Source: Candidatus Methanosuratincola sp.
GTDB lineage: Archaea > Thermoproteota > Methanomethylicia > Methanomethylicales > Methanomethylicaceae
NCBI GenBank assembly: GCA_014361455.1
Contig: JACIVP010000007.1
Location: 1-64,000 of the forward strand
Reading direction: 5' to 3'
DNA: 64,000 nt
Shown here: piece after piece, positions 26,922-48,939 of the stretch
Layout: every line of letters begins with the position of its first letter
How positions within the stretch are numbered: the first letter of the stretch is position 1
Position numbers and translations under genes: made by a program
Notes under the pieces: generated by a model
What the model saw: the letters and a program-made list of their open reading frames with translations, nothing else
What the model was told of the DNA's origin: nothing
The model's database searches: none

Positions 26922-26996
26922 GGGCTGGTAGATTAGCGGCAGATCACCTGCCTTGCACGCAGGGGGTCGTGGGTTCAAATCCCACCCAGTCCACCA
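26922..26996 (+). tRNA. tRNA-Ala (TGC)
   Basis: Acceptor GGGCTGG pairs with CCAGTCC, including the G3:U70 identity pair of alanine tRNAs. The anticodon arm is CCTGC-CTTGCAC-GCAGG, giving TGC. The T arm is GTGGG-TTCAAAT-CCCAC, then discriminator A and an encoded CCA. No intron. AAATAAATAAAAATA about 26-40 bases upstream is a good TATA region. Confidence 0.95.
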
Positions 26997-26998
26997 AC

Positions 26999-27022
26999 CT
27001 TTTTGCCCTTGAAGGCAAAAAG
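26999..27022. terminator. Inverted repeat after tRNA-Ala
   Basis: A perfect 9-bp stem (CTTTTTGCC / GGCAAAAAG, 6-base loop) starts two bases after the CCA end. It partly overlaps a second AT-rich inverted repeat (AAAAGTTT / AAACTTTT) to about 27040. It may terminate the tRNA transcript or insulate the restriction gene that follows. Confidence 0.45.
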
Positions 27023-27100
27023 TTTGATAAAAAACTTTTGGAATTTAATCATTTATATAAATCGTATTTATTAAATACCATATATCCACTATATTATGCC

Positions 27101-27763
27101 ATGTCCCGCCTCGGAGAGCTCTTCGACGACCCCCTGATGGTCTATAAGGTCAAGCGGAAGCTCCCCCTCCTCTTCCAGATGGCCGAGCTTGAGAGTGCCA
27201 GGGCGGGGAAGATGGGGATGGAAGTCGGGTCGCTCCGGGAGCGGATCCTGGTAGCGCTCCTCATCCACAAGTTCGGGAAGGACGCTGTGGACACAGACAT
27301 ACCGATCACCGAGACTCAGGTTGACGTCAGGCTCTTCGGCGCCCCCGTCTCTGTTAAGACAATCACAGGCAGCGGAGGGATCAAAGCCGTGTGGACCGTC
27401 GACGCCGCGAGCGCAGCCTACTTCATCAAGAACTACGAGCCAGAATGCGACGTGCTCCTGGCGCAGATCAGGTGGGGCTGCACCCACGCCCAAGAAGCAA
27501 TACCGGGAAGCCCGCACCACCCGGGAGGACTCTTCCTGATCCCGCTCGATGTGCAGCAGAAAGTGTTCTCGGAAATGGGAAGGGAAGGGTACCTGAAAAT
27601 GCCAAAGCCTGGCACTAACCCGAGGGGCGTCGAGTTCTCAAGAGATGCCATAGCGAAGCTACTTCGGGATCCCGGGACCAGATGCATTACTGTCGCCTGG
27701 AAGAAGACTTCGATCCAGTACGATCCCTACCATAGGTGGGTCGATCTATGGGCAAGTGATTAA
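27101..27763 (+). CDS. Type II restriction endonuclease, probably ThaI-like
   Basis: A 220-residue protein: RLGELFDDPLMVYKVKRKLP, AGKMGMEVGSLRERILVALL, then a PD-(D/E)xK-like core DIPITETQVDVRLFGAPVSVKTITG (E, D and VK as candidate ligands). RWVDLWASD ends the protein. The overall pattern recalls the ThaI family, whose founder cuts CGCG. That identification is from memory and tentative. The ATG at 27101 is preferred to the longer frame, and an AT-rich promoter lies at about 27040-27075. It converges on a DNA methyltransferase gene with a 4-base overlap of ends, the standard layout of a restriction-modification pair. Confidence 0.7.
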   Translation: MSRLGELFDDPLMVYKVKRKLPLLFQMAELESARAGKMGMEVGSLRERILVALLIHKFGKDAVDTDIPITETQVDVRLFGAPVSVKTITGSGGIKAVWTVDAASAAYFIKNYEPECDVLLAQIRWGCTHAQEAIPGSPHHPGGLFLIPLDVQQKVFSEMGREGYLKMPKPGTNPRGVEFSRDAIAKLLRDPGTRCITVAWKKTSIQYDPYHRWVDLWASD

Positions 27764-28668
27764 CCGGTGTACGAAAAGAGTTTCTTCTGATTCACGATCT
27801 CAGAGACTCTCTTCTTCGCCTTCTTGACGTACTCCTCCTCGATGTCCACGCAGATGAAATGCCTACCGGCCTTCAGTGCCGCCACTGCAGTGGTCCCGAC
27901 TCCGCAGAACGGGTCGAAGACGACCTCGCCATTGAAGGTGTAGAGTTGGATGCACCTGTAGGGCAGCTCGACTGGGAACGGTGCCGGATGACCGACCCTC
28001 TCGGCGGACTCCGGCATAAACCTCCAGACGCTCTTGGTAAACTCGAGAAACTCGTCCCTCGTAATGGTGTCCTCTTTTCCTTTTTTCCTCCTCGAAAACT
28101 TCCCCTTCGAGAATACGAGGATGTACTCGTGGGTATCCCTCAGCGTTGGATTCGAGGCAGACTGCCAGCTGCCCCAGGCGGTAGATACACCAGCGCCTGC
28201 CCCCTTGTCCCAGATTATCTCGCCGCGCATAAGAAAACCAACTTCAAGCATACAGTCAATTACGAACTTGTGGTAGGGGATATATGGCTTCCTTCCCACA
28301 TTGGCTATATTGACGCAGGCGCGGCCTCCTGGGACCAGAACGCGGTAGGTCTCTGCGAAGACCTTCTTAAGCAGGTCCAGGTAGGCAGGTAGGTCTAGGT
28401 CCTCGTCGTACTCCTTCCCGACATTGTATGGGGGCGAGGTGACCATCAGGTGGACGCTCGAATCGGGAATTATCGAGAGCGACCTGCTATCTGCCAAGAT
28501 GATCATGTCGAGCACATCGGACGGCACGGGGTTCTCTACCTCGGGGGCTTTTTCGTTAAAGTTGGATCCGGAATAGAGCGACCTGGCGTAGAACTCCGAT
28601 GAATCGTGGTTTTCCCTCTTCGAAACCCCGAACCCTTTAGTCTTGGTTCCATTCCGCATATCTCTCAA
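27760..28668 (-). CDS. DNA methyltransferase (beta-class, N4-cytosine or N6-adenine)
   Basis: A 302-residue modification enzyme. Motif IV TSPPYNVGKEYDED (about residue 88) precedes motif I VVFDPFCGVGTTAVAALKAG (about 255), the order of beta-class amino-methyltransferases. The SPPY tetrad favours N4-cytosine methylation, which would suit a GC-only recognition site. The N-terminal ~70 residues are less conserved. The start is ATG 28668. It is the likely partner of the endonuclease with which it converges. Next to a tRNA gene and a transposon relic, the pair looks like a small acquired island. Confidence 0.9.
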   Translation of the reverse strand: MRDMRNGTKTKGFGVSKRENHDSSEFYARSLYSGSNFNEKAPEVENPVPSDVLDMIILADSRSLSIIPDSSVHLMVTSPPYNVGKEYDEDLDLPAYLDLLKKVFAETYRVLVPGGRACVNIANVGRKPYIPYHKFVIDCMLEVGFLMRGEIIWDKGAGAGVSTAWGSWQSASNPTLRDTHEYILVFSKGKFSRRKKGKEDTITRDEFLEFTKSVWRFMPESAERVGHPAPFPVELPYRCIQLYTFNGEVVFDPFCGVGTTAVAALKAGRHFICVDIEEEYVKKAKKRVSEIVNQKKLFSYTG

Positions 28669-29181
28669 TACAATTGGGGAGTGTATAAATTAATACCTGT
28701 TGTTGAATTGGTGTTCAATCTACAAACCGCCGCTTCGAACACGCTGGGCGCACATTTACTATTATGGGATGGGTATACTGAGGGGTTATCATCAAAGCCT
28801 GTCATTGACCTAGGTTCACGACCTGATCCCAAACCTCAGAGATAACATTTCCTGTAGTGTTCTTCAAAGCTGTGAGGTTTGGCTGGCTTTTTATAGTATG
28901 AATTATTCTCGAGTTGCAAAGTTCGAATATTTCATCAGGTATATGTGAAGGCTGTTGAGAAGTGAACTACCACCTAACAAAACAGCGGCCCGGGAGGGGA
29001 GGTTAAAAATATTCAGCAGCTTAACAAATTATTTAAGTTAGCTAATCGTAGAAGTTATTGGTGGTTAAACCACTGGAACTCCGCCCCAAAGGATGATGCC
29101 CGTGGATGCGGGATGGGACGAAGGGGAGGATCACCATCTTTTTACAAAACTATTCTAAGCGGCTTAAATATATACCTAATT
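28669..29181. other. Intergenic region before TnpB relic
   Basis: About 510 bases, AT-rich in places (28670-28700, 29005-29045). It holds the methyltransferase promoter, and possible left-end sequences of the TnpB element with a TGGTTAAACCA palindrome near 29062-29072. No gene is supported. Confidence 0.35.
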
Positions 29182-30792: not shown

Positions 30793-31614
30793 TTAGGCTT
30801 TCAGTGCTTTCGGCAGGCTCTTCCCCCAGCCACCCTTGACCCTGTTTTCGTAGACATTGGCGATCACTCTGTGGAACTCCTCTGCGTCTTCCTCGAAGTC
30901 TATGTTGTCCGTACGGTAGGCGCAAGTCCTGCGTTTAAGCTCCTCCTCCAGAGCCCTCTGGCCGAAATTTATCGGCATGTCCAAGGTCTTGCCCCACTGG
31001 TCCTTTATGTAGTAGATGCAATTGTCCTTCTCATTGTACCAAGTCCTCCTCTTGGCATCGAACATGAGGCCGTTCTCGTCCAGGCGGAGGGAGTGCCCAT
31101 GGACGGTAATGGCCCTCACCGCGTTTACGGCAGGGTCGAAGATCTCGGTCTCGAGCAACTCCTTAGCGACCGCCTCAAGATCGCGCTCTCTCATCTCCAG
31201 AGGTATCCTGCCGGAGAGAGCGCCGACATCGCAGCCACGGTAACGCCAGTGGTATAGCCTTGCCCTTATGGTTGACATTATCGGTGCGAAGTAGATCGAA
31301 TCAGTAAACTGGATAAACTTGATCGCATCTCCAGCCTTTGCGCCTGCAGTTGGTTCGACGAGCTGCCTTATCGGGCAGTCTGGCTCGCCGATCTCGTCCA
31401 ATGGAGGGTGGATAGAGAGGTATCTCTCGCCTGGCGACCTAAAGCCCAGAAGTCTGGTGAGCTCCTCTTCCGTTAATGATCTTATCTTCTTAAGCTTGTT
31501 ATCTGGGTTGAGGTATCTCCGGCGGTTTTCAGCCACGGTAGTTTTTCCAGGGCAGAACTGTGGAGTATACTTTTTACTGTTTTGCTCTTTCTGGACGCTT
31601 CTCTTCCCAGCCAT
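30793..31614 (-). CDS. mcrG: Methyl/alkyl-coenzyme M reductase gamma subunit
   Basis: A 273-residue McrG. After a ~16-residue N-terminal extension, it follows the canonical chain closely: YTPQFCPGKTTVAENRRRYL, DAIKFIQFTDSIYFAPIMST, HWRYRGCDVGALSGR, MRERDLEAVAKELLETEIFD and VHGHSLRLDENGLMFD. Arg136 of LSGR aligns with Arg-gamma120 of the Methanothermobacter enzyme, which salt-bridges the CoM sulfonate. The gene begins one base after mcrB ends. This subunit is far more conserved than McrA, arguing that the holoenzyme is functional. Confidence 0.95.
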   Translation of the reverse strand: MAGKRSVQKEQNSKKYTPQFCPGKTTVAENRRRYLNPDNKLKKIRSLTEEELTRLLGFRSPGERYLSIHPPLDEIGEPDCPIRQLVEPTAGAKAGDAIKFIQFTDSIYFAPIMSTIRARLYHWRYRGCDVGALSGRIPLEMRERDLEAVAKELLETEIFDPAVNAVRAITVHGHSLRLDENGLMFDAKRRTWYNEKDNCIYYIKDQWGKTLDMPINFGQRALEEELKRRTCAYRTDNIDFEEDAEEFHRVIANVYENRVKGGWGKSLPKALKA

Positions 31615-32980: not shown

Positions 32981-34666
32981 CTAGTGTGGAGGTATCACGG
33001 GATCCCTCTCTCCCTCTGGCATGAATTCGCGTAGCGCACCTTTCACAAGCGTTCTCCTGATGTTTCCAAAGTCGAAGCCCGAAAGGTTCTCAGAGAAGGC
33101 TATCTTAACCAGCGGGTTGCACGCGTATGCACCTCCGCGCGCAATATAGGCGCCAGCTATCGCGGACGGGAATGTGGTTAAATTAGCCACGACATTGTAG
33201 TCGGGGTAGCTTGCATTACGCATCTCCATCACCTGGGACTGGTCCGTGAGCAGGGTCCAGTCGTTCGCGTGGCCTTGGTTATGGAACTGGTCCTGTGCGA
33301 AGAAACCTAGCCTGCCCGTCCGCTCCTTTCTTATCATCTGGCTTAGGTGGGCGGCTTCGACGCCTATCATCGGGTGGCCCGAGGCGAGCCCGCCGATGAT
33401 TGCAGTTGAATAGGCCATAACCCGAGATCTGAGGGAACCGCCAAAGAGCATCTCGCAGACCAGTGGTGAGGAATCGTAGATGTCTTGGCAGTACTTCGCC
33501 ACCACCTTCGCGACTTCTTCAATCGTGGAGATCGTCCAAGGTGCTTTTCCGTAGCCGCCGTATTTTTCCTTGACCCAATCCGCCATATGCTCAACGATGT
33601 TGTCAAAAACATCGTTGCTCATGAGGAATAGTACCCTGATCGGGGCCCCAAGTCCCCCTGAGAGCATCTGCTGTAGCCAGCCCGCATCGAGCATTATCGA
33701 AGAGATCTCGGCGACGTCAAGAAGGTACTTCACCGGATCATCAGGATAGACTCGGTCGGTCTGGACAATGTCGCAGATGTATCCAAAGGGGATCCCTCCT
33801 GGCGAGTTCTCGCCCCTCCCGTACCGGACTGCGATCGTGTCGCCTATCCCGATTATCGTTCGGTGTTTGAGTGTGTATACGAGGGTGTTGATTGCAGTCT
33901 CCCCTGAGATTCCGTAAACGTTGGCGAACGCGGAGAGGCAGGTTGTTGATACCCAGCGCTTGGTCATTGCCGACCCGTAGTTCCTGACCGCGATTGTTGG
34001 TATTCTCGCCAGAGCGAAGATCTTGTCACCCAACTCTTTCTTCAGGAAAGTGGCCTTCTCAGGAGAAAACAGGCGGTTGATGTCGAGAACTATCCTCTTG
34101 TCCAAGAGGTCAGTAACCCTGTCGTCACCGCAGAAGAGCTTCACATAGCCGTCCTTGACCAAGAGCGGGTTTATCTCAAACATGTGTTCCTGGACGGCTG
34201 CTGCGCCTCCTATGGTGTGGTTCCAGACCTCCATCACACGGTTCAGCGTCTCAGGGGTGACCGCCTTCCCAAGTCTCTTCTGGAGTATCTCGTGCACTGG
34301 GGTTAGGTCCATGATCGCAGTTCTCGCAATGTCGTCAAACAGCTGCATGATGGCAGCATTGTTGCATATGTGCATGTCCTCTCCTTCGACGAGGACATTC
34401 TCCTTGCTTATCAAGTATGGAGCGATCTTCCTCTGTCCGAGCGGGATCCCCAGATCGGGGTTATATCTCGGAATCCCCATCGTATTCTCGAGCTTCCTGG
34501 CGTACTCGTAAAACTCCCTTTTCCTCTTCGACTGCCTCCAAGCACCGTAGCAGTAGAAAGCCGTGCGGCGCTCCTTGTTGGACTCTTGGAAGACCTTCTC
34601 CAGTGATTTTATGTAGCTCGGAGTGGTTTCCTTTTTACCATTGCTTTTAACCAAAATGCTCACCAA
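32981..34666 (-). CDS. mcrA: Divergent methyl/alkyl-coenzyme M reductase alpha subunit
   Basis: A 561-residue McrA (TTG 34666; GTG 34663 equally possible). Fold-defining segments are clear: GGAAAVQEHMFEINPLLV, GRGENSPGGIPFGYICDI, CNPLVKIAFSENLSGFDFG and KGALREFMPEGER. By ungapped eye alignment, Gln159 (F430 axial ligand), His268 (methyl-His), Lys267 and Arg281 (CoB phosphate) are kept. The canonical Arg271, Phe330, Tyr333, Gln400, Gly445 (thioglycine) and Cys452 correspond to Tyr282, Ala341, Arg344, Leu412, Ala457 and Gln464. This points to an alkyl-CoM reductase-like enzyme rather than a methanogenic one. The start overlaps the zinc-ribbon gene by 20 bases. Confidence 0.93.
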   Translation of the reverse strand: MVSILVKSNGKKETTPSYIKSLEKVFQESNKERRTAFYCYGAWRQSKRKREFYEYARKLENTMGIPRYNPDLGIPLGQRKIAPYLISKENVLVEGEDMHICNNAAIMQLFDDIARTAIMDLTPVHEILQKRLGKAVTPETLNRVMEVWNHTIGGAAAVQEHMFEINPLLVKDGYVKLFCGDDRVTDLLDKRIVLDINRLFSPEKATFLKKELGDKIFALARIPTIAVRNYGSAMTKRWVSTTCLSAFANVYGISGETAINTLVYTLKHRTIIGIGDTIAVRYGRGENSPGGIPFGYICDIVQTDRVYPDDPVKYLLDVAEISSIMLDAGWLQQMLSGGLGAPIRVLFLMSNDVFDNIVEHMADWVKEKYGGYGKAPWTISTIEEVAKVVAKYCQDIYDSSPLVCEMLFGGSLRSRVMAYSTAIIGGLASGHPMIGVEAAHLSQMIRKERTGRLGFFAQDQFHNQGHANDWTLLTDQSQVMEMRNASYPDYNVVANLTTFPSAIAGAYIARGGAYACNPLVKIAFSENLSGFDFGNIRRTLVKGALREFMPEGERDPVIPPH

Positions 34667-34937
34667 AATGTTTCATGTCTTTTCTTATAAATGAGGAAAG
34701 ATTTTTTATGAGTATCGCACCGTCTGTGTCGGACTTTCCTTGACTCATCCTGAACTCGAAGTCGCACCTTGGGCAGCGGAGGTTCGGGCAGTTGAGAACA
34801 GACTCCCTGCACCCCACGCATGCTATACCCCTCGACTGGAAGATCGAGAAATGGTAGTGGCAGTGCGGGCACTCGTATATCTCTGCCGTTGCTTTTGATA
34901 CGTTTCTTACCAGTATCTCTTCCCAAGGTTCAGTCAT
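34647..34937 (-). CDS. Small double zinc-ribbon protein preceding mcrA
   Basis: A 96-residue protein with eight cysteines in CxxC-type arrangements: YECPHCHYHFSIF, GIACVGCRESVLNC and NLRCPRCDFEFRM, i.e. two ribbon-like knuckles in residues 22-62. The rest is helical (AILIKNLSSFIRKDMKHFGE). It is sandwiched between the CoM methyltransferase gene (34 bases upstream) and mcrA, with which it overlaps, so it is probably translationally coupled to the reductase. I know of no characterised homologue. A role in assembling, activating or regulating the reductase is conjecture. Confidence 0.8.
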   Translation of the reverse strand: MTEPWEEILVRNVSKATAEIYECPHCHYHFSIFQSRGIACVGCRESVLNCPNLRCPRCDFEFRMSQGKSDTDGAILIKNLSSFIRKDMKHFGEHFG

Positions 34938-34971: not shown

Positions 34972-36066
34972 TTACTTTGGCCTGTACTTCTTCGCGGAGA
35001 TTACGAACGCCTCGATGTTCTCAAGCGGTGTAGCCGGCGGTATGCAGCAGTCCGCTACGTGAACATACTTACCGCCAGGGTAGCATGTTTCTAGCAGCCG
35101 GTTGACCTCTGCTTCTATCTCGCTCGGGGACCAGTATGCCAACTGATCCGATGCGCGGAATGTTCCACCCACAGCAACGCAAGGAGAGAACTCCGCAAAG
35201 AGCTTCTTCTTCTGCGCCATCGTCGCTGCATCCTTGTAGTAGCCCCATACCAGAGTGGGCATCTCGTCAAGACCGAACCTTGTCATGTCATCCACGACTA
35301 GGTCAGCGCTAGGACCGGAGCAGATGTGCCGAGAGTAGCTGAGGAAGCCCATCTTCTTGGCCGACTGCAGGTACTGCCTTTCGTATGGGACGCAGAACTG
35401 CCTGAAGTGCTCAGGGCTGAGGACGGTCTCGCTGCCTGCACCTGATGTAAAGCCTGTAGCTCCAGCAGACTGCCAACCTTCGATGATATTTATGCAGGCA
35501 TCCGTTGCAAATTTGAGGAGGTCGTGGACAAACCATGGTCGGCGCATTATGTCGAAGGATATGTCCCAGAGCCCCCTGATCCTGGCAGCTACTGAGAACG
35601 GCCCGACTGTCCCTGCACTGATCGGAGCGTAGTTTCCGAAATCACGTACCACTTTACGAAGTGCATTGTATATACAAGGGAGATCGCCATCAACCCTCGG
35701 ATCAGGTATGTGTACCCTGTCGAGATCCTCCGGAGACTTGATGACATATTCTACGGGAGCGGGCAGCTGATCCTTGAAGTACTTATCCTTTGTGCCTATA
35801 GCCACTGCCTCGACGGTTGTATAAGTAGTGACAGTAATGATATCTGGCTTGAACTTCTCGGTGAGTGCTTTGATCCCCTTGTACAGCAGAATCCCGTTCT
35901 TATCTCTCACAACGTCCGCGACGGTCACCTGTGGCAGACCGAGCCCTGTCTCCTTACGGCCAAGCCATCCTATGCATATCCTATCGGTTGGTTCGCCCTT
36001 TAAGGTCGCAGAAACCCGGTCGAACGTGCTCATCTCATCCTTTGTAAATTCAGACATTCTAGGCAC
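34972..36066 (-). CDS. UroD-family methylcorrinoid:CoM methyltransferase (MtaA/MtbA-like), copy 1
   Basis: A 364-residue TIM-barrel protein of the uroporphyrinogen-decarboxylase-like methyltransferase family. The zinc site expected in MtaA/MtbA is present: HxC in LSYSRHICSGPSADL and the distal Cys in HVADCCIPPATPLENIEAF. MtaA/MtbA/MtsA move methyl groups between corrinoid proteins and CoM thiol. It overlaps the upstream corrinoid-protein gene by 8 bases and sits in the operon leading to mcrABG. The partner reaction is therefore probably transfer between the corrinoid and the alkyl/methyl-CoM used or made by the reductase. Direction and alkyl group are unknown. Confidence 0.88.
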   Translation of the reverse strand: MPRMSEFTKDEMSTFDRVSATLKGEPTDRICIGWLGRKETGLGLPQVTVADVVRDKNGILLYKGIKALTEKFKPDIITVTTYTTVEAVAIGTKDKYFKDQLPAPVEYVIKSPEDLDRVHIPDPRVDGDLPCIYNALRKVVRDFGNYAPISAGTVGPFSVAARIRGLWDISFDIMRRPWFVHDLLKFATDACINIIEGWQSAGATGFTSGAGSETVLSPEHFRQFCVPYERQYLQSAKKMGFLSYSRHICSGPSADLVVDDMTRFGLDEMPTLVWGYYKDAATMAQKKKLFAEFSPCVAVGGTFRASDQLAYWSPSEIEAEVNRLLETCYPGGKYVHVADCCIPPATPLENIEAFVISAKKYRPK

Positions 36067-36715
36067 CTCCCCTATTTACAAAATCGTGTATCTTGTTAAC
36101 AGCATCTATGGCGTCTTTCGCGTACATGATGTTCAACTCTTCGGCAAGGGCAGGGCTGGTCGCGTAGCCTCCAATAATGAAATTGGTCCTATCCCCTCTG
36201 ACCTGCCTCACCCGCTCTACCGTCTTCCTAAGCGACATTAACCCAGGAGAGACTAGTGCGGACATTCCTACGATGTCGGCGTCGAATTCTTGTGCTTTTG
36301 CTGCGAAAACATCGGCAGGTATATCTACGCCAAGGTCATATACGTCGTGTCCTGAGACCTCCAGCATGGTCTTCACTAGGTTTTTGCCGATGTTGTGGAT
36401 GTCGCCTTCCACAGTGCCTATGACTATCCTGAGCGGCTTGCCTGCCTTCGGTTCCGACTTGAGCTTTGTCTCGATCAATGCCAAGCCTTTTTTGAAGGCG
36501 TCAATCGTCACAACAAGCTCCGGCAGAAATGCTTCCTTGTTTGAAAGTTGCTCCCCCATGTGGAGCACGCCTGTCGAAATAATGTCGAAGATTTTCCTTG
36601 CACTTAAGCCCATCTCTAGCAGTTTATTGACGCAACTCTCCGTGGCTTTGACGTCACCCTTAATAACGTTCTGCTTCAAAACTTCAGCGAGTTGGGTTTC
36701 TTCGGACACTACCAA
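36059..36715 (-). CDS. Corrinoid (B12-binding) methyltransferase protein, copy 1
   Basis: A 218-residue two-domain corrinoid protein like MtmC/MtbC/MttC. The N-terminal helical cap is residues 1-88 (NKLLEMGLSARKIFDIIS, LHMGEQLSNKEAFLPELVV). The Rossmann domain has the lower-ligand motif VEGDIHNIGKNLVKTML (DxHxxG) and later DIVGMSALVSPGLMSLR and FIIGGYATSPALAEEL. Starts are TTG 36715 or GTG 36709. It is the first gene of the leftward operon and overlaps the UroD-type partner. No substrate-specific partner such as MtmB, MtbB or MtaB is adjacent. Confidence 0.93.
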   Translation of the reverse strand: MVVSEETQLAEVLKQNVIKGDVKATESCVNKLLEMGLSARKIFDIISTGVLHMGEQLSNKEAFLPELVVTIDAFKKGLALIETKLKSEPKAGKPLRIVIGTVEGDIHNIGKNLVKTMLEVSGHDVYDLGVDIPADVFAAKAQEFDADIVGMSALVSPGLMSLRKTVERVRQVRGDRTNFIIGGYATSPALAEELNIMYAKDAIDAVNKIHDFVNRGGA

Positions 36716-37328: not shown

Positions 37329-38387
37329 TTGGCGAAAAAAATGTCTCAGAGAGAAGAGATGACACCATACGAACGGCTAATGATCGCCTTTGAATTGAAA
37401 AAGCCAGACAGGGTGCCAGTGACCCCATTTGTCCGCGAATGGTGCGTAAGACAGGCGGGGTATAAGTTCTCTGAAGTAATGAGCAACACGGAGAAGTATG
37501 TCTATTCCCAGCTGTACTCGATAAGAAAATATGGCTACGACATGGTCTTAGACTTGCTTGCAGTGCATGCTGAATCTGAAGCAATGGGAAGCGTGCTGAA
37601 AATTCCAGAGGATGCGCCTCCCTCGGTGGACATACCAGCAGTAAATGACTATTCGAAGGACCTCCCCAAACTCAGGATACCACACCCGAGAAAAGACGGG
37701 CGACTGCCGCTGATATTGAAGGGAACTAAAAGACTGAAGGAGGCCGTAGGCGACACAATACCTGTGATGGGCTACGTTCAAGCCTGTTGGAGGCACACAT
37801 GTATGATGAGGGGGACTGAGAGGGCGCTTCTTGATATGAAGAAAAATCCGGACGCGCTAAAGGAGCTGTTGGACATAGCCACTGAAAGCTGCATCGTCTA
37901 TGGGGAAGCTGTGGTCGAGGCGGGCGCAGATCTGATATGGGTATCGGATCCAACATCCTCAGGGGACATGATTTCCAAGAAGGCTTTCGAAGAGTTTGTC
38001 TACCCGTTCCTCCGCAGGCAAATAAAGGCCTTCAAGCGCATGGGAACCAAGGTCTTCCTTCACATATGTGGCAATGTGAACGACAGGCTAGAATCGATGG
38101 CGAATACGGGCGCAGACGCGATAAGCGTCGACGAGAAGGTGGATCTCGCGAAGGCCAAGACATTGATCGGAAACAGGGTCTGCATCATGGGCAACATCAG
38201 CCCTGGCGTGACGCTCCTCCAGAAGACGCCCCAGGATGTGGAACAGGAGTGCAAGGTGGCGATTGAGAAGGCGATGGAAGGGGGAGGTTTCGTACTCGCC
38301 CCAGGGTGCATCATACCAGCCGCAACTCCAGGAGAAAATATTGCAGCAATGGTGAATTCAGTGAAGAAGTATGGTGTCTATCAGTAA
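37329..38387 (+). CDS. UroD-family methylcorrinoid:CoM methyltransferase (MtaA/MtbA-like), copy 2
   Basis: A 352-residue MtaA/MtbA-type methyltransferase. EEMTPYERLMIAFELKKPDR is the usual family opening. The zinc ligands appear as HxC in VFLHICGNVNDRL and Cys in VLAPGCIIPAATPGENIAAM, closer to the canonical MtbA pattern than copy 1. Starts are TTG 37329 or ATG 37341. It overlaps its corrinoid-protein partner by 17 bases and is divergent from the reductase operon. Expected to transfer methyl or alkyl groups between a corrinoid protein and coenzyme M. Confidence 0.9.
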   Translation: MAKKMSQREEMTPYERLMIAFELKKPDRVPVTPFVREWCVRQAGYKFSEVMSNTEKYVYSQLYSIRKYGYDMVLDLLAVHAESEAMGSVLKIPEDAPPSVDIPAVNDYSKDLPKLRIPHPRKDGRLPLILKGTKRLKEAVGDTIPVMGYVQACWRHTCMMRGTERALLDMKKNPDALKELLDIATESCIVYGEAVVEAGADLIWVSDPTSSGDMISKKAFEEFVYPFLRRQIKAFKRMGTKVFLHICGNVNDRLESMANTGADAISVDEKVDLAKAKTLIGNRVCIMGNISPGVTLLQKTPQDVEQECKVAIEKAMEGGGFVLAPGCIIPAATPGENIAAMVNSVKKYGVYQ

Positions 38388-39048
38388 GGGGGTATTGAAA
38401 ATTACAGAAAAAACAGAACTTTTCGAAAAACTGGCTAAATGCGTAGTGGACGGCGACGAAGAAGGAGCCAAGCAACTGGCGGAAGAAGCGATCAAGAACG
38501 GCATCGACGCATATGAAGCGATAATGCAGGGTCTAGCAGTTGGAATGAACAAGGTAAGTGAGCTCTATGAGAAAGGCGAGTACTATGTTCCGGAGGTTCT
38601 CCTGTCCGCGAGTGCCATGAATATGGCGGTGGAGATTCTGAAACCACATATAAAGATAGATAAGACTACAAAACCGATTGCGGTGGTACTCGGAGTTGTT
38701 GAAGGGGATATACACGACATTGGCAAGAACTTGGTTAAGATAATGCTGGACGCCGCCGGGTATAAGGTAATAGACCTAGGGAAGGACGTGCCAATCGGGG
38801 AGTTCGTCAAGGCTGCGAAGGAGAATGGCGCAGACGTGATAGGGATGTCTGCCCTGATGACCACAACGATGCCAGGGATGAAGAAGGTCGTGGAACAGCT
38901 CGTTGCAGCAAACTATAGGGAGAAAGTCAAGGTGATGATCGGAGGCGCGCCAACTACCATGGAGTATGCAGAAACCATAGGAGCAGACATGTGGGGCAAG
39001 GATGCTTCATCGGCGGTGGGCATTGTCAAGCGCCTTACCGCACACTAA
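38371..39048 (+). CDS. Corrinoid (B12-binding) methyltransferase protein, copy 2
   Basis: A 225-residue corrinoid protein with an N-terminal helical cap (residues 1-90, KGEYYVPEVLLSASAMNMAV) and a B12 domain carrying VEGDIHDIGKNLVKIML (DxHxxG). DVIGMSALMTTTMPGMKK and KVMIGGAPTTMEYAETIGAD follow. Compared with copy 1 the gene order relative to the UroD-type partner is reversed, so the two modules did not simply arise by duplicating one unit in place. The ABC ATPase frame begins within its last codons. Confidence 0.94.
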   Translation: MVSISKGVLKITEKTELFEKLAKCVVDGDEEGAKQLAEEAIKNGIDAYEAIMQGLAVGMNKVSELYEKGEYYVPEVLLSASAMNMAVEILKPHIKIDKTTKPIAVVLGVVEGDIHDIGKNLVKIMLDAAGYKVIDLGKDVPIGEFVKAAKENGADVIGMSALMTTTMPGMKKVVEQLVAANYREKVKVMIGGAPTTMEYAETIGADMWGKDASSAVGIVKRLTAH

Positions 39049-42985: not shown

Positions 42986-44659
42986 ATGGAAATGACAACT
43001 GCCTATCTTATCATCATTGGCCTTGCGTTCTGGCTCTTCGGAATATTCGTCATTTCAACACGCCTTGAAAAGAGCTATTTCACCCCAGATCCCAACAGAA
43101 AGACGCCGGCGTGCGCATTCAGGGACGACTTTGACTTCTACCCTGCCAACCCGTACTCCCTATTTGGGGACCACTGGGCTGCCACCGCAGGCGGAGCTCC
43201 TCTCTCTGGAGGAGTGGCAATCGCCCAATGGGGTTGGGCGTCAGGATTACTGTATGTGCTGCCCGTTAACATACTGCTAGGTTCTGTACACGATTATGCT
43301 TCAGGATTCGTAATGATGCGGCAACGCGGGCAGACTGCCAGTGAGATCTCATACAAGTGGATCACGCCCTTTTCAGGACTCTTGTTCTCCCTGCTCGGCT
43401 ACCTCGCAATTCTGAGCTTCTGCACATCATTCGCCAAGCTCGTAATCTCCGGTGCCACAAGCACTCCAGCTCTGTTTATACCCATAATGCTTCTTGCGGT
43501 TATTGGACCTCCTTCGGGGTATCTATTGTACCGGAAGGGGTGGCCGATCTGGCTTGTAGGTGTCATTCAGTTCATAATTTTCTTGGCAGCGCTCTGGGTA
43601 GGCATGATGTACCCAGTACTTATGCCAACGGAATTCTGGTATGTATTCCTTGTGATTGTTGGTGTTCTAGCAGCTTGTCTCCCCAACTGGCTCTACTCTG
43701 AACCAACAAACTTCATGATGTTCCTTTACATGGCAGTCGGAGTTGCACTGGTCTTCGTAGGTGGACTTGTGTCGAACATTCCTATAACGGACTTCCCTGC
43801 ACTGATATTCTACGACCCAGCACTCACGCCGAGCGGATGGTTCTACCCCGGCATCGCAATGATGGTGTCCTGCGGCGCACTCACAGGAATGCACGTTTTT
43901 TGGATCGGTTCATATACCTGCAAGCGGTTCCCTGAGGAAAAATGGGTCAGAATAATCGGATACGGCGGAGAAATCCTTGAGAGCGTAGGGCTTTGGACAG
44001 CTTTCATTGCAATGTTAGTGCTTCCAGTTTCGGTATACCTACCTGCCTTGAAAGCAGGATGGACTCAAGCCTATGGCTTAGGATTCGCAAAGATAGTCGG
44101 GGCGATTGCGCCTGGAATCGATTCTAGCACATTGGTGCTCCTTGGAATGTGGGTCGCAATAGTATTCATCATGAGCACATTCTACTCTGGCTTTAGGAAC
44201 ATGCGAGTCCTAGGGCTAGAATTCGTGCAGCTCGCGACAAAACGCCAAATAACCAAGCATGTGAATGCTTCCAGGTGGCTTGCAGCAATAATCACAGGTA
44301 TCTTGATGGTCGCGCTGGCACTCACCGGCGCTTACTTGCAGATTTGGGCCCTCTTCCCGATCCTGTCCACATCACTAGCAGTGTTCTCATTCATAGTTGT
44401 GGGCGAATGGTGCGTCCTACACGACAAGAGCCCGACAATATGGCGTGTAGCCGCGTTCGTCACATTGTTTTTAATCTCGATGCCAGCATCGGTGTACGGT
44501 GCATGGTGGAACTTCCAAGCAGGTGCAATAGTTCCTGGGCTCGTTTCCCTACTTGCAGTGGCAGTGACACTGCTCTTCGTTGAGGAGTGGCTGAGGCGCA
44601 GAAGGCGCGGCTATACGCCAGAAGAGAAGGAAAAGTTCGTGAAATTCGAAGAGTTCTAA
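42986..44659 (+). CDS. cstA: CstA-family carbon starvation/pyruvate transporter
   Basis: A 557-residue polytopic protein with about 14 to 16 hydrophobic helices. CstA family landmarks are PANPYSLFGDHWAATAGGAP then LSGGVAIAQWGWASGLLYVL, NILLGSVHDYASGFVMMRQR and TGMHVFWIGSYTCKRF. CstA/BtsT proteins are proton-linked importers of pyruvate or peptides. The C-terminus is basic (EEWLRRRRRGYTPEEKEK). It has its own promoter. Pyruvate import would feed carbon to an acetyl-CoA/C1 metabolism like that suggested by MetV/MetF next door. Confidence 0.92.
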   Translation: MEMTTAYLIIIGLAFWLFGIFVISTRLEKSYFTPDPNRKTPACAFRDDFDFYPANPYSLFGDHWAATAGGAPLSGGVAIAQWGWASGLLYVLPVNILLGSVHDYASGFVMMRQRGQTASEISYKWITPFSGLLFSLLGYLAILSFCTSFAKLVISGATSTPALFIPIMLLAVIGPPSGYLLYRKGWPIWLVGVIQFIIFLAALWVGMMYPVLMPTEFWYVFLVIVGVLAACLPNWLYSEPTNFMMFLYMAVGVALVFVGGLVSNIPITDFPALIFYDPALTPSGWFYPGIAMMVSCGALTGMHVFWIGSYTCKRFPEEKWVRIIGYGGEILESVGLWTAFIAMLVLPVSVYLPALKAGWTQAYGLGFAKIVGAIAPGIDSSTLVLLGMWVAIVFIMSTFYSGFRNMRVLGLEFVQLATKRQITKHVNASRWLAAIITGILMVALALTGAYLQIWALFPILSTSLAVFSFIVVGEWCVLHDKSPTIWRVAAFVTLFLISMPASVYGAWWNFQAGAIVPGLVSLLAVAVTLLFVEEWLRRRRRGYTPEEKEKFVKFEEF

Positions 44660-45793: not shown

Positions 45794-45894
45794 AAACTCC
45801 CCCCTCCGAATGATCGTCAATTAGAGATAAAAAGATGATCCACAGCACCAGGCTCGCTCAAATATGCGATATGTTGATATTTGTGAGAGAAGTA

Positions 45895-46548
45895 ATGACT
45901 CCGTGGCAAGCCAAGATGATAATCACCAAGAAAAAACCCTTTGAGTCGCTCAATGAGAGCCTCAAGCCCTTCAAGAGGGTCTTCATCATTGGGTGCGGCA
46001 CATGCTCCACGGTGTGCCAGACAGGCGGGGAAGCCCAGGTGAAGGAGATGGCAGAGAGGATAAGCGAGAAGTGCGCTGGCTACACGGTCGTGGAGAGCCC
46101 ATGCGACATGAGGGTTCTGAGGAGGGATTTGGCTCCGAAGAGGGCTGAGGTGAACTCGGCAGATGCAATACTTTCCCTCTGCTGCGGGGCCGGAGCGCAA
46201 TCAGCGGCGGACTTCACGGGTAAGGCAATAGTGCCAGGCCTGGACACGCTGTTCATCGGGAAGATAGAGAGGATTGGCAACTTCTACGAGAGGTGTAGGG
46301 CGTGCACCGACTGTATAATCCTCGAGACCGGAGGGATCTGCCCCTACTCGAGGTGTGCCAAGGGGTTGCTCAACGGCCCCTGCGGGGGGCAGGTCCAAGG
46401 GAAATGCGAAGTGGGAGGGTACACGAGGGAGTGCGCATGGGTGCTGGCATACAATGCGCTCAAGCAGCAAGGGAGGCTCGAAGTTTTCCGGAAGTACAGG
46501 CCTCCGGCAGACAAGTCAAAGAAGCCCCAGGAGATCATTACCAAGTAG
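45895..46548 (+). CDS. metV: MetV-like Fe-S/zinc partner of methylenetetrahydrofolate reductase
   Basis: About 217 residues from ATG 45895 (MTPWQAKMI); the frame opens earlier. The N-terminal domain has VFIIGCGTCSTVCQTGGEAQ and VESPCDMRVLRRDL. The C-terminal cysteine-rich domain reads CRACTDCIILETGGICPYSR then CAKGLLNGPCGG, KCEVGG and CAWVLAYNAL. This matches the MetV/MTHFR C-terminal family, in which the cysteines hold Fe-S clusters. It is followed 9 bases later by metF, the classic MetVF arrangement of methylene-tetrahydropterin reduction in acetyl-CoA pathway organisms. Confidence 0.9.
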   Translation: MTPWQAKMIITKKKPFESLNESLKPFKRVFIIGCGTCSTVCQTGGEAQVKEMAERISEKCAGYTVVESPCDMRVLRRDLAPKRAEVNSADAILSLCCGAGAQSAADFTGKAIVPGLDTLFIGKIERIGNFYERCRACTDCIILETGGICPYSRCAKGLLNGPCGGQVQGKCEVGGYTRECAWVLAYNALKQQGRLEVFRKYRPPADKSKKPQEIITK

Positions 46549-46557
46549 GCGGAGTAT

Positions 46558-47514
46558 ATGAACCGTGTCTTCAGCAAGCTGATGTCAGAAATTCAATCGG
46601 GAAAGTTCGTCTACACCGGAGAGATCTCGCCGGGCAAGACCACAAGGATCGAGGGGCTGATCAGGTCCGCAGGTGTGCTCGGGAAACACGTAACAGCATG
46701 CAATGTCACCGACAACCCGAGGGCAAGGGCAAACATGAGCAGCCTGGCTGCATCCATCGCGATCCAGGAAAAGGCCGGCGTGGAGGTCATATGCCAGATG
46801 ACTGCAAGGGACAGGAACCGCATTGCGCTGACATCGGACCTGCTTGGCGCTGCAGCGTTGGGAGTAAGGAACGTGTTGGTGATGAGCGGGGACCACCCTT
46901 CGCTGGGCGACAACCCGTTGGCGATGCCCGTATACGATCTTGACTCCGCACATATGGTTGAGCTGGTGAGGAGGATGGTCGACGAGGGGACCGACCTAGT
47001 AGGGAATAGGATAGACGGGGAGGTCAGGCTCCATGTGGGAGTCGTTGGGAATCCGAATGCGGATCCCATAGAGGTCGAAATCGCAAAGCTCGAAAGGAAG
47101 GCAGAGATCGGCGCGGAGTTCATCCAGACGCAGGCCGTCTTCGACATCGAGGTGGCGGAGAGGTTCCTCGACAGCGTGGAGGGGATCGGCGTCCCAGTCC
47201 TCATCGGGATCATGCCGTGCAGGTCGTTCCGTACGGCGGAGCAGATCGAAAAGAATGTTCCCGGGATCAGGATCCCGCAGGAATATTTGGAGAGGCTGAG
47301 AGGCGCGGAGGAGCTCCCCGACCTTGCATCCAAGGAGGAGAGGGCTGACTTCATAAACGAGGAGTACTTCTCCAGCATGATCTCAGACTTGAGGAGGACT
47401 GGCAGACTGGCGGGCGCCCACATCATGGGGGTCTCGTACAACCAGATCGTGGGCAGGATAGTCGAAGCTGTTCAGAAGAGGGAGGGGGGAAAAAGAAGTA
47501 AAAGAAAGGGATAG
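46558..47514 (+). CDS. metF: Methylenetetrahydrofolate reductase (MetF)
   Basis: A 318-residue MetF TIM barrel. Landmarks are FVYTGEISPGKTTRIEGLIR (catalytic Glu in GEISP), HVTACNVTDNPRARANMSSL, VEVICQMTARDRNRIALTSD, GVRNVLVMSGDHPSLGD and KAEIGAEFIQTQAVFDIEVA. It converts methylene- to methyl-tetrahydropterin with MetV. This supplies or consumes methyl groups that the nearby corrinoid proteins could exchange. Its presence suggests a folate-type (or MetF-adapted) C1 branch. The tail is basic (KREGGKRSKRKG), and the last base overlaps the next start. Confidence 0.93.
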   Translation: MNRVFSKLMSEIQSGKFVYTGEISPGKTTRIEGLIRSAGVLGKHVTACNVTDNPRARANMSSLAASIAIQEKAGVEVICQMTARDRNRIALTSDLLGAAALGVRNVLVMSGDHPSLGDNPLAMPVYDLDSAHMVELVRRMVDEGTDLVGNRIDGEVRLHVGVVGNPNADPIEVEIAKLERKAEIGAEFIQTQAVFDIEVAERFLDSVEGIGVPVLIGIMPCRSFRTAEQIEKNVPGIRIPQEYLERLRGAEELPDLASKEERADFINEEYFSSMISDLRRTGRLAGAHIMGVSYNQIVGRIVEAVQKREGGKRSKRKG

Positions 47515-48500: not shown

Positions 48501-48812
48501 GGCAGTCCACGCCGTCAGAAAAAAAGAAAAGGAAAGCTATAATCCGTGGGCAAAAGCACATGGTGCACTGAACATTTTTATAACTGGGATTTTATTTTTG
48601 TAGGCATGAAGCCAAGGGGTATGCCAATAATTCCCAGACCGTTCAGTCGCCCCGGCCCACCACCGTTGGGCTCAGAGCAGTCATGAAAATGCCAAGGCAA
48701 ACAGAATTCGCAGAGGCGTCCTGGACGTTGTGAACCGGAACGGCATCAGCGAATCGCTCTGAATCAGAGATCTGGTGAGGCTGCTCTGAAACATGCAAAG
48801 AAGGTTCAATGA
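48501..48812. other. Intergenic region before tRNA-Val
   Basis: About 310 bases holding no supported gene. TTTTTATAACTGGGATTTTA near 48574-48596 resembles a promoter, and a short open stretch after 48605 (ATGAAGCCAAGGGG) is too brief and unsupported to call. Confidence 0.35.
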
Positions 48813-48905
48813 TGGGCCCGCCCGGACTCGAACCGGGGACCTTCGCCGTGTGAAGGCGACTTTAGGCCTTTTTCAGGTGTCCTAACCAGACTAGACTACG
48901 GGCCC
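48813..48905 (-). tRNA. tRNA-Val (CAC) with an 18-nt non-canonical intron
   Basis: On the minus strand the acceptor GGGCCCG pairs with CGGGCCC plus discriminator A. The D arm is GTCTAGTCTGGTTAGGAC, the anticodon arm is TCGCC-TTCACAC-GGCGA (anticodon CAC) and the T arm is CCCGG-TTCGAGT-CCGGG. Eighteen extra bases lie between the D arm and the anticodon stem, so the intron is at about position 26/27. Removing them gives a 75-base tRNA. CCA is not encoded, unlike the other tRNAs here. The bulge-helix-bulge fold was not verified. Confidence 0.88.
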
Positions 48906-48939
48906 ACAGAACGCAGCATTTGAAAAAACATACGCATGC

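What the first reader, a model, noticed from the sequence alone, without database searches (positions are those of the whole stretch)
32981..34666. McrA that has lost four of five modified-residue positions and the catalytic tyrosine
Ungapped eye alignment around each motif to Methanothermobacter McrA gives Arg271 to Tyr282, Gln400 to Leu412, Gly445 (thioglycine) to Ala457, Cys452 to Gln464, Tyr333 to Arg344 and Phe330 to Ala341. His257 is kept as His268, and the F430 axial Gln147 as Gln159. The gene is intact, in an operon with well-conserved McrB and McrG. Alkyl-CoM reductases are known to be divergent. An enzyme with Ala at the thioglycine site and Arg at Tyr333 would have an unusual active site, perhaps for a bulky or charged CoM thioether.
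Basis: partly seen in the sequence, partly recalled or inferred. Interest (0 to 1): 0.92.

Follow-up and report, generated by a model that had tools for sequence, protein, structure and literature searches.

The report
Second, altered methane-enzyme in a methanogen
A methane-making archaeon carries, beside its normal methane-forming enzyme, a second strongly altered copy with a rebuilt reaction pocket, encoded together with its own methyl/alkyl-transfer proteins, so it probably acts on something other than methane; such second copies were already reported, but I found no description of the changed active site or the gene partners.

Summary
In an intact 561-aa McrA, Arg271, Phe330, Tyr333, Gln400, Gly445 and Cys452 are Tyr, Ala, Arg, Leu, Ala and Gln; His257 and the nickel ligand Gln147 are kept. 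This is a second copy: the same Methanomethylicia genome has a canonical McrA with every site intact. The variant ("McrA2") has orthologues in three more species of the family, all six changes invariant, dN/dS near 0.03, so it is maintained. The anchors for CoM sulfonate and CoB phosphate, beta-Tyr367 and beta-His379 are kept. McrA2 also has a one-residue loop deletion reported for alkyl-CoM reductases of bulky alkanes. It is co-encoded with McrB2, McrG2, a Zn-ribbon protein, a corrinoid protein and an MtaA-superfamily methyltransferase whose orthologues occur only in McrA2 genomes. Acyl-CoA dehydrogenase and CdhC were not found, so complete alkane oxidation is unsupported. Best reading: an alkyl-CoM-reductase-type enzyme that reductively cleaves a CoM thioether bulkier than methyl, supplied by its own corrinoid system (about 45%). 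The substrate is unknown. Second, ethane-type McrAs in Methanomethylicia are published (PMC10033731, PMC10766756); in what I could read I found no account of the active-site losses or the operon.

The parts
32981..34666 (-). McrA2, divergent alpha subunit, 561 aa
31616..32968 (-). McrB2, divergent beta subunit; keeps Phe361, Tyr367, His379 equivalents
30793..31614 (-). McrG2, gamma subunit; keeps the LSGR motif with Arg120
34647..34937 (-). 96-aa Zn-ribbon-like protein overlapping the start of mcrA2; conserved upstream of all four mcrA2
34972..36066 (-). MT1, MtaA/CmuA/HemE-superfamily methyltransferase with HxC...C zinc-ligand pattern; orthologues only in McrA2 genomes
36059..36715 (-). Corr1, corrinoid protein with DxHxxG B12 motif
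37329..38387 (+). MT2, MtaA/CmuA-family methyltransferase; adjacent block, also in relatives without McrA2
38371..39048 (+). Corr2, methyltransferase-cognate corrinoid protein; adjacent block
42986..44659 (+). CstA-family transporter of the adjacent block; directly next to mcr2 in G017

Best explanation
McrA2B2G2 is the second MCR-superfamily enzyme of a Methanomethylicia methanogen: a catalytically competent, alkyl-CoM-reductase-type complex using F430, CoM and CoB. Proposed route: an alkyl (or substituted methyl) group is loaded on the corrinoid protein Corr1 and moved to the thiol of CoM by MT1 (an MtaA-type zinc alkyltransferase); [quoted passage not shown] Shown: intact, conserved genes; the changed residues; kept CoM and CoB anchors; the gene linkage; absence of two marker enzymes of alkyl-group oxidation. 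Inferred: the reductive direction, the size and polarity of R, and that the enzyme binds F430.
For: Intact ABG set, dN/dS 0.031 for the closest pair. Changes invariant in four species. Nickel ligand Gln147, CoB-phosphate residues Arg225, Lys256, His257, Arg270, beta-His379, sulfonate-binding gamma-Arg120, beta-Tyr367 and beta-Phe361 kept while the wall next to the thioether (Phe330, Tyr333) is changed. One-residue deletion in loop 239-246 as in ACRs of bulky alkanes. Large-to-small change at Phe330 fits the proposal for ACR cavities (PMC9635834). Operon with Corr1 and MT1; MT1 orthologues only in McrA2 genomes. Canonical MCR also present, so a redundant methane role is unnecessary. No acyl-CoA dehydrogenase or CdhC.
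Against: No substrate, activity or structure. The losses are not enriched at the active site compared with other conserved columns (p = 0.12). Alkyl-CoM reductases are so far known as alkane oxidisers. No ACR sequence outside this clade could be aligned here. The AlphaFold monomer model was too poor to use.
Confidence: 0.45

Rival explanations
1. Ethyl-CoM-reductase-like enzyme in the oxidative direction: it activates ethane or another short alkane to alkyl-CoM, the alkyl group is passed through MT1 and Corr1, and it ends as acetate.
For: Published trees place the second McrA of LCB019-004 and FUM_bin.40 with ethane oxidisers, and acetate formation was inferred for FUM_bin.40 (PMC10033731; PMC10766756).
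Against: The modified residues that the ethane enzyme keeps are lost (PMC9081873). McrA2 scores lower against ECR (388 bits) than against methanogenic MCR (504 bits) and has no ECR-like insertions. No CdhC or acyl-CoA dehydrogenase. The neighbouring transporters are for solutes.
Confidence: 0.2
2. A methyl-CoM reductase isoenzyme that still makes methane, dedicated to methyl groups arriving through MT1/Corr1 or to special conditions.
For: Methylotrophic-type partners Corr1 and MT1; methanogens often carry MCR isoenzymes (general knowledge); thioglycine and methyl-Arg are dispensable in genetics (PMC9118554).
Against: 41% identity to the canonical copy, against about 69% between canonical Methanomethylicia and Euryarchaeota McrA; Phe330->Ala and Tyr333->Arg at the methyl pocket.
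Confidence: 0.17
3. A non-catalytic or regulatory MCR-like complex, for example a coenzyme-binding sensor or carrier.
For: One active-site tyrosine and several modified positions are gone.
Against: Nickel ligand, coenzyme anchors, beta-Tyr367 and all three subunits are kept under strong purifying selection, with a co-occurring alkyltransferase.
Confidence: 0.1
4. Sequencing, binning or alignment artefact, or a decaying pseudogene.
For: The bin has 4.6% estimated contamination; the first alignment was by eye.
Against: Orthologues with the same residues in three other assemblies; dN/dS 0.03; the neighbouring block is syntenic with Methanomethylicia relatives.
Confidence: 0.01

Closest known systems
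Second, ACR/ECR-type McrA of Methanomethylicia MAG LCB019-004 (PMC10033731) and of FUM_bin.40 'Ca. Methanosuratus' (PMC10766756)
   Same: LCB019-004 is the genome of the 82% orthologue found here, so this is the same gene family. FUM_bin.40 likewise has canonical plus divergent MCR in a Methanomethylicales genome; whether it is an orthologue was not tested.
   Different: In the passages read the papers report tree position and a proposed ethane metabolism, not the active-site residues, loop deletion or operon partners.
Ethyl-CoM reductase of Ca. Ethanoperedens thermophilum (7b1s)
   Same: MCR superfamily; divergent alpha subunit with changed CoM surroundings.
   Different: ECR keeps thioglycine, methyl-Arg, methyl-Gln and methyl-Cys, has Met as nickel ligand and ethanotroph-specific insertions; McrA2 has Gln as ligand, no such insertions and none of these four residues.
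ACRs of Syntrophoarchaeum, Methanoliparum and Helarchaeota
   Same: Single-residue deletion in loop 239-246; variable position 400; substitutions near the coenzymes (PMC9118554).
   Different: Their hosts oxidise, or are proposed to oxidise, alkanes; here acyl-CoA dehydrogenase and CdhC were not found. Their residues at 333 and 445 could not be compared.
ANME-1 MCR (3sqg)
   Same: Small hydrophobic residue at position 400 and no methyl-Arg; in ANME-1 the residue at 400 goes with methylthio-F430 (PMC9118554).
   Different: Thioglycine is present in part of the ANME-1 population (PMC9081873); ANME-1 MCR is the lowest-scoring structure against McrA2.
Canonical McrA of the same genome (G000:C1:252427-254085)
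   Same: Homologous alpha subunit of about the same length in an ABG set.
   Different: Keeps all five modified positions, Phe330 and Tyr333; 42% identity to McrA2.

Membership tests
MCR/ACR superfamily | Homologous alpha, beta and gamma subunits | tested here: met
   TIGR03256, TIGR03257, TIGR03259 and PDB matches; alpha and beta are below their equivalog cut-offs, gamma above
MCR/ACR superfamily | F430 nickel ligand and CoM/CoB anchor residues | tested here: met
   Gln147, Arg225, Lys256, His257, Arg270, beta-Tyr367, beta-His379 and gamma-Arg120 kept; Asn481 deleted
MCR/ACR superfamily | Bound F430 and turnover of a CoM thioether | not testable with these tools
   needs purified protein
Canonical methanogenic MCR | Residues for thioglycine (445) and methyl-Arg (271) | tested here: not met
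   Ala and Tyr in all four McrA2
Canonical methanogenic MCR | Phe330 and Tyr333 | tested here: not met
   Ala and Arg in all four
Ethyl-CoM reductase (ethanotroph ECR) | Ethanotroph-specific insertions forming the channel entry | tested here: not met
   McrA2 aligns to canonical McrA without long internal insertions; the insertions are described in PMC9118554
Ethyl-CoM reductase (ethanotroph ECR) | Tree position inside the ethane clade | not tested
   reported for the LCB019-004 gene; no ACR/ECR sequences available here; bit scores favour methanogenic MCR
Mid/long-chain ACR (Syntrophoarchaeum/Methanoliparum type) | Single-residue deletion in loop 239-246 | tested here: met
   VYGI-SGET against AYKQAAGEA; definition
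Mid/long-chain ACR (Syntrophoarchaeum/Methanoliparum type) | Host with beta-oxidation and acetyl-CoA decarbonylase | tested here: not met
   PF00441 and PF03598 absent in six genomes, controls positive; only these two markers were tested

The most novel reading that the evidence does not exclude
McrA2B2G2 is an F430 enzyme for a polar, non-alkane CoM thioether: Arg at the Tyr333 position holds a charged group of R (for example a carboxylate), R is imported as a solute and loaded through the dedicated Corr1/MT1 system, and the product is not an alkane. This would be a new substrate class for the MCR superfamily, in a natural member without the thioglycine, methyl-Arg, methyl-Gln and methyl-Cys sites.
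Probability: 0.18. Interest if true: 0.88.

Novelty: new variant of a known kind. Interest (0 to 1): 0.62.

Why it matters
MCR and its relatives make nearly all biological methane and open alkanes anaerobically, and the roles of their modified residues and of Tyr333 are debated. A natural, selectively maintained variant that has lost four of the five classical modified positions and one of the two active-site tyrosines is a ready-made test of which are needed for catalysis. Its dedicated corrinoid/CoM alkyltransferase offers a handle on the substrate, and with oxidation markers missing it is a candidate for natural non-methane alkyl-CoM reduction (alkanogenesis).

Tried and rejected
Artefact or pseudogene: rejected (orthologues, dN/dS). 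Recent duplication of the host's own MCR: not supported; McrA2 is about equally far from canonical Methanomethylicia and Euryarchaeota McrA (39-43%) and forms one long branch. Enrichment of losses at the active site: tested, not significant (p = 0.12). Transporter CstA as an obligate partner: rejected, it also occurs in relatives without McrA2. Zn-ribbon as an McrA2-specific partner: only in part; G012 has a 70% homologue beside a corrinoid gene with no mcr genes, and weaker homologues occur in other methyltransferase clusters. AlphaFold monomer from a 20-sequence alignment: pLDDT 50.5, not used, so no fold search was made. ACR sequences from other phyla could not be reached: the genome-contig scan returned only this clade and two draws of the phylum found no McrA match outside this class. 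The ECR chain ranked too low in PDB searches for its alignment to be printed. The papers proposing ethanogenesis (Wang 2021) and comparing ACR residues (Borrel 2019) are not held.

Full report
WHAT IS THERE. The window lies on contig C112 of a 1.52-Mb genome. PF02249 finds two McrA genes in it: a canonical one on contig C1 (222 bits) and the one in the window (76 bits). The organism is taken to be a Methanomethylicia (Verstraetearchaeota-type) archaeon, from orthologues in records titled Candidatus Methanomethylicota, Methanomethylicia and Methanomethyliaceae and from synteny with same-family genomes. The ORF 32981-34666 (-) is intact, 561 aa.

RESIDUES. Using M. wolfeii MCR I in M. marburgensis numbering as ruler: Arg271->Tyr282, Phe330->Ala341, Tyr333->Arg344, Gln400->Leu412, Gly445->Ala457, Cys452->Gln464; also Gln230->Thr, Tyr444->Phe, Asp450->His, Trp427->Ala/Gly, and Asn481 deleted. 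Kept: Gln147, Arg225, Lys256 (Lys or Arg), His257, Arg270, Phe443, beta-Phe361, beta-Tyr367, beta-His379 and the gamma LSGR motif with Arg120. (In one search my typed beta reference lacked one Gly, so beta positions after 370 print one too low; beta-His379 is the row printed as 378.) The roles of these residues as CoM, CoB or nickel contacts are from established knowledge of MCR structures, not tested here. The canonical copy of the same genome and all other class McrAs that cover the sites have the usual residues.

MORE THAN CHANCE? McrA2 has orthologues in three other species, G007 (91%), G014 (82%) and G017 (79%), so it spans three genera of the family, with every listed substitution invariant. 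dN/dS for the closest pair is 0.031; wider pairs have saturated synonymous sites with pN of 0.12-0.15. It is therefore maintained. The losses are not concentrated in the active site: 89 of 238 canonical-invariant columns are replaced in all four, 15 of 31 at listed sites and 74 of 207 elsewhere, one-sided p = 0.12. The protein has diverged as a whole while the coenzyme anchors stayed. Its branch is about 1.04 substitutions per site long, and its internal topology (G000+G007, then G014, then G017) agrees by eye with the grouping of the canonical genes by genus, consistent with descent in the family and repeated loss. G012 has a partial corrinoid gene and a Zn-ribbon gene (62-70% identical) with no mcr genes beside them, as if the mcr2 cluster was lost there or never inserted.

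LOOP DELETION. McrA2 lacks one residue in loop 239-246 (VYGI-SGET against AYKQAAGEA). A structural review reports a single deletion in this same loop for some ACRs of Syntrophoarchaeum, Methanoliparum and Helarchaeota, with a modelled cleft from the solvent to the CoM site, and itself urges scepticism about the models (PMC9118554). Replacement of large aromatics by small residues has been proposed to make room for longer alkyls (PMC9635834); Phe330->Ala fits. Leu at position 400 recalls the small hydrophobic residue that goes with methylthio-F430 in ANME-1, so a modified F430 is possible (inference).

OPERON. Reading the minus strand: Corr1 (36715-36059), MT1 (36066-34972), Zn-ribbon (34937-34647), McrA2 (34666-32981), McrB2 (32968-31616), McrG2 (31614-30793), with overlaps or gaps of at most about 35 bases. 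Corr1 has the B12 motif DxHxxG. MT1 belongs to the MtaA/CmuA/HemE superfamily, below the equivalog cut-offs, and keeps HxC...C at the positions of the MtaA zinc ligands (the ligand role is from general knowledge), so it is plausibly a CoM alkyltransferase (inference). Among 40 genomes of the class, MT1 orthologues (73-100%) occur only in G000, G007 and G014, all McrA2 genomes; G017's contig ends before that position; the 36 genomes without McrA2 have only matches of 28% or less. By my own arithmetic, three of four against none of 36 has a chance of about 4 in 10,000 if genomes were independent, but shared ancestry makes that optimistic.

NEIGHBOURHOOD. Relatives without McrA2 (G011, G013, G015, G016) share a block of MT2, Corr2, ABC-transporter genes, CstA and an MtaA, next to an aldehyde ferredoxin oxidoreductase, a ThiS/MoaD-like protein, a CCG-domain iron-sulfur protein, an arginase-family protein and, in three of them within the stretch read, a FAD-linked oxidase. 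In G000 and G007 the mcr2 operon lies beside MT2; in G017 it lies beside CstA and MtaA of the same block. Two different junctions with one block suggest a functional link. In G014 a sodium:solute symporter lies upstream of Corr1. Solute transporters argue mildly for a soluble substrate. CstA itself is not specific to McrA2 genomes.

DIRECTION. Acyl-CoA dehydrogenase (PF00441) and CdhC (PF03598) have no match in six genomes including all four with McrA2, while controls were positive. Two of the four McrA2 genomes are only 77-78% complete, but the other two are over 93%. Complete oxidation of an alkyl group through acyl-CoA and CODH/ACS is therefore unsupported; oxidation of ethane to acetate, as proposed for a similar MAG (PMC10766756), is not excluded. 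YcaO, the thioglycine enzyme, is present near the canonical mcr genes (only a fragment in G014), so what McrA2 lacks is the target residue, not the machinery. The arginine methylase Mmp10 had no match above its cut-off in any of six genomes.

WHAT IS KNOWN. A second McrA in LCB019-004, the genome whose record holds the 82% orthologue, was reported in 2023 to cluster with ethane-type McrAs (PMC10033731), citing Wang et al. 2021 for a similar 'Ca. Methanosuratus' MAG with a proposal of ethanogenesis or ethane oxidation; that paper is not held. PMC10766756 reports another Methanomethylicales MAG with canonical plus divergent MCR. So the existence of the gene is known. In the passages read I found no mention of the active-site losses, the loop deletion in this clade or the MT1/Corr1/Zn-ribbon linkage. 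Supplementary files could not be read, so priority cannot be claimed. The ethane enzyme keeps the modified residues that are lost here (PMC9081873), and the McrA2 profile scores lower against ECR (388 bits) than against methanogenic MCR (504 bits), so 'ethane-type' by tree should not be read as 'ethane enzyme'. Whether other uncharacterised ACRs share Arg333 or Ala445 could not be checked: I had no ACR sequences, and the review notes even more drastic substitutions in Helarchaeota and Lokiarchaeota enzymes.

VERDICT. Confirmed observation; a real, conserved, divergent MCR-superfamily enzyme coupled to its own alkyl-transfer module. Most likely an alkyl-CoM-reductase-type enzyme working in the reductive direction on a thioether other than methyl-CoM (0.45); ethane-type oxidation 0.2; methane isoenzyme 0.17; non-catalytic 0.1; the rest other or unknown.

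Noticed in passing
G000, G004, G007, G013, G014, G017: The arginine methylase Mmp10 (TIGR03278) has no match above its cut-off in six Methanomethylicia genomes, two of them 96% complete, although their canonical McrA keeps Arg271; either it is unmethylated or another enzyme acts.
   Followed up: no
L089:1-1538 (G012:C12): Partial corrinoid gene and Zn-ribbon gene, arranged as in G017, but without mcrA2B2G2: a possible loss scar or pre-insertion state.
   Followed up: partly
L114, L115, L116, L117: Conserved block in relatives: FAD-linked oxidase, CCG iron-sulfur protein, arginase-family protein, aldehyde ferredoxin oxidoreductase, ThiS/MoaD-like protein, MT2, Corr2, ABC genes, CstA, MtaA; looks like an undescribed methyl or alkyl utilisation locus.
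   Followed up: partly
window 26922-28668: ThaI-type restriction endonuclease and an N4/N6 DNA methylase directly beside, and overlapping, a tRNA-Ala gene; possibly a mobile restriction-modification unit.
   Followed up: no
window 29059-29136 (+): Match to the DUF3800-X RNA family (RF02984, 49.6 bits, gathering score 38.2) between the DNA methylase gene and the mcr2 operon.
   Followed up: no
window 45835-47514 (+): MetV-like (DUF5981) and MetF-like methylene-tetrahydrofolate reductase genes downstream of CstA.
   Followed up: no
window 48811-48906 (-): ARAGORN calls a tRNA-Pro with anticodon AGG, unusual for an archaeon; perhaps an intron-placement error.
   Followed up: no
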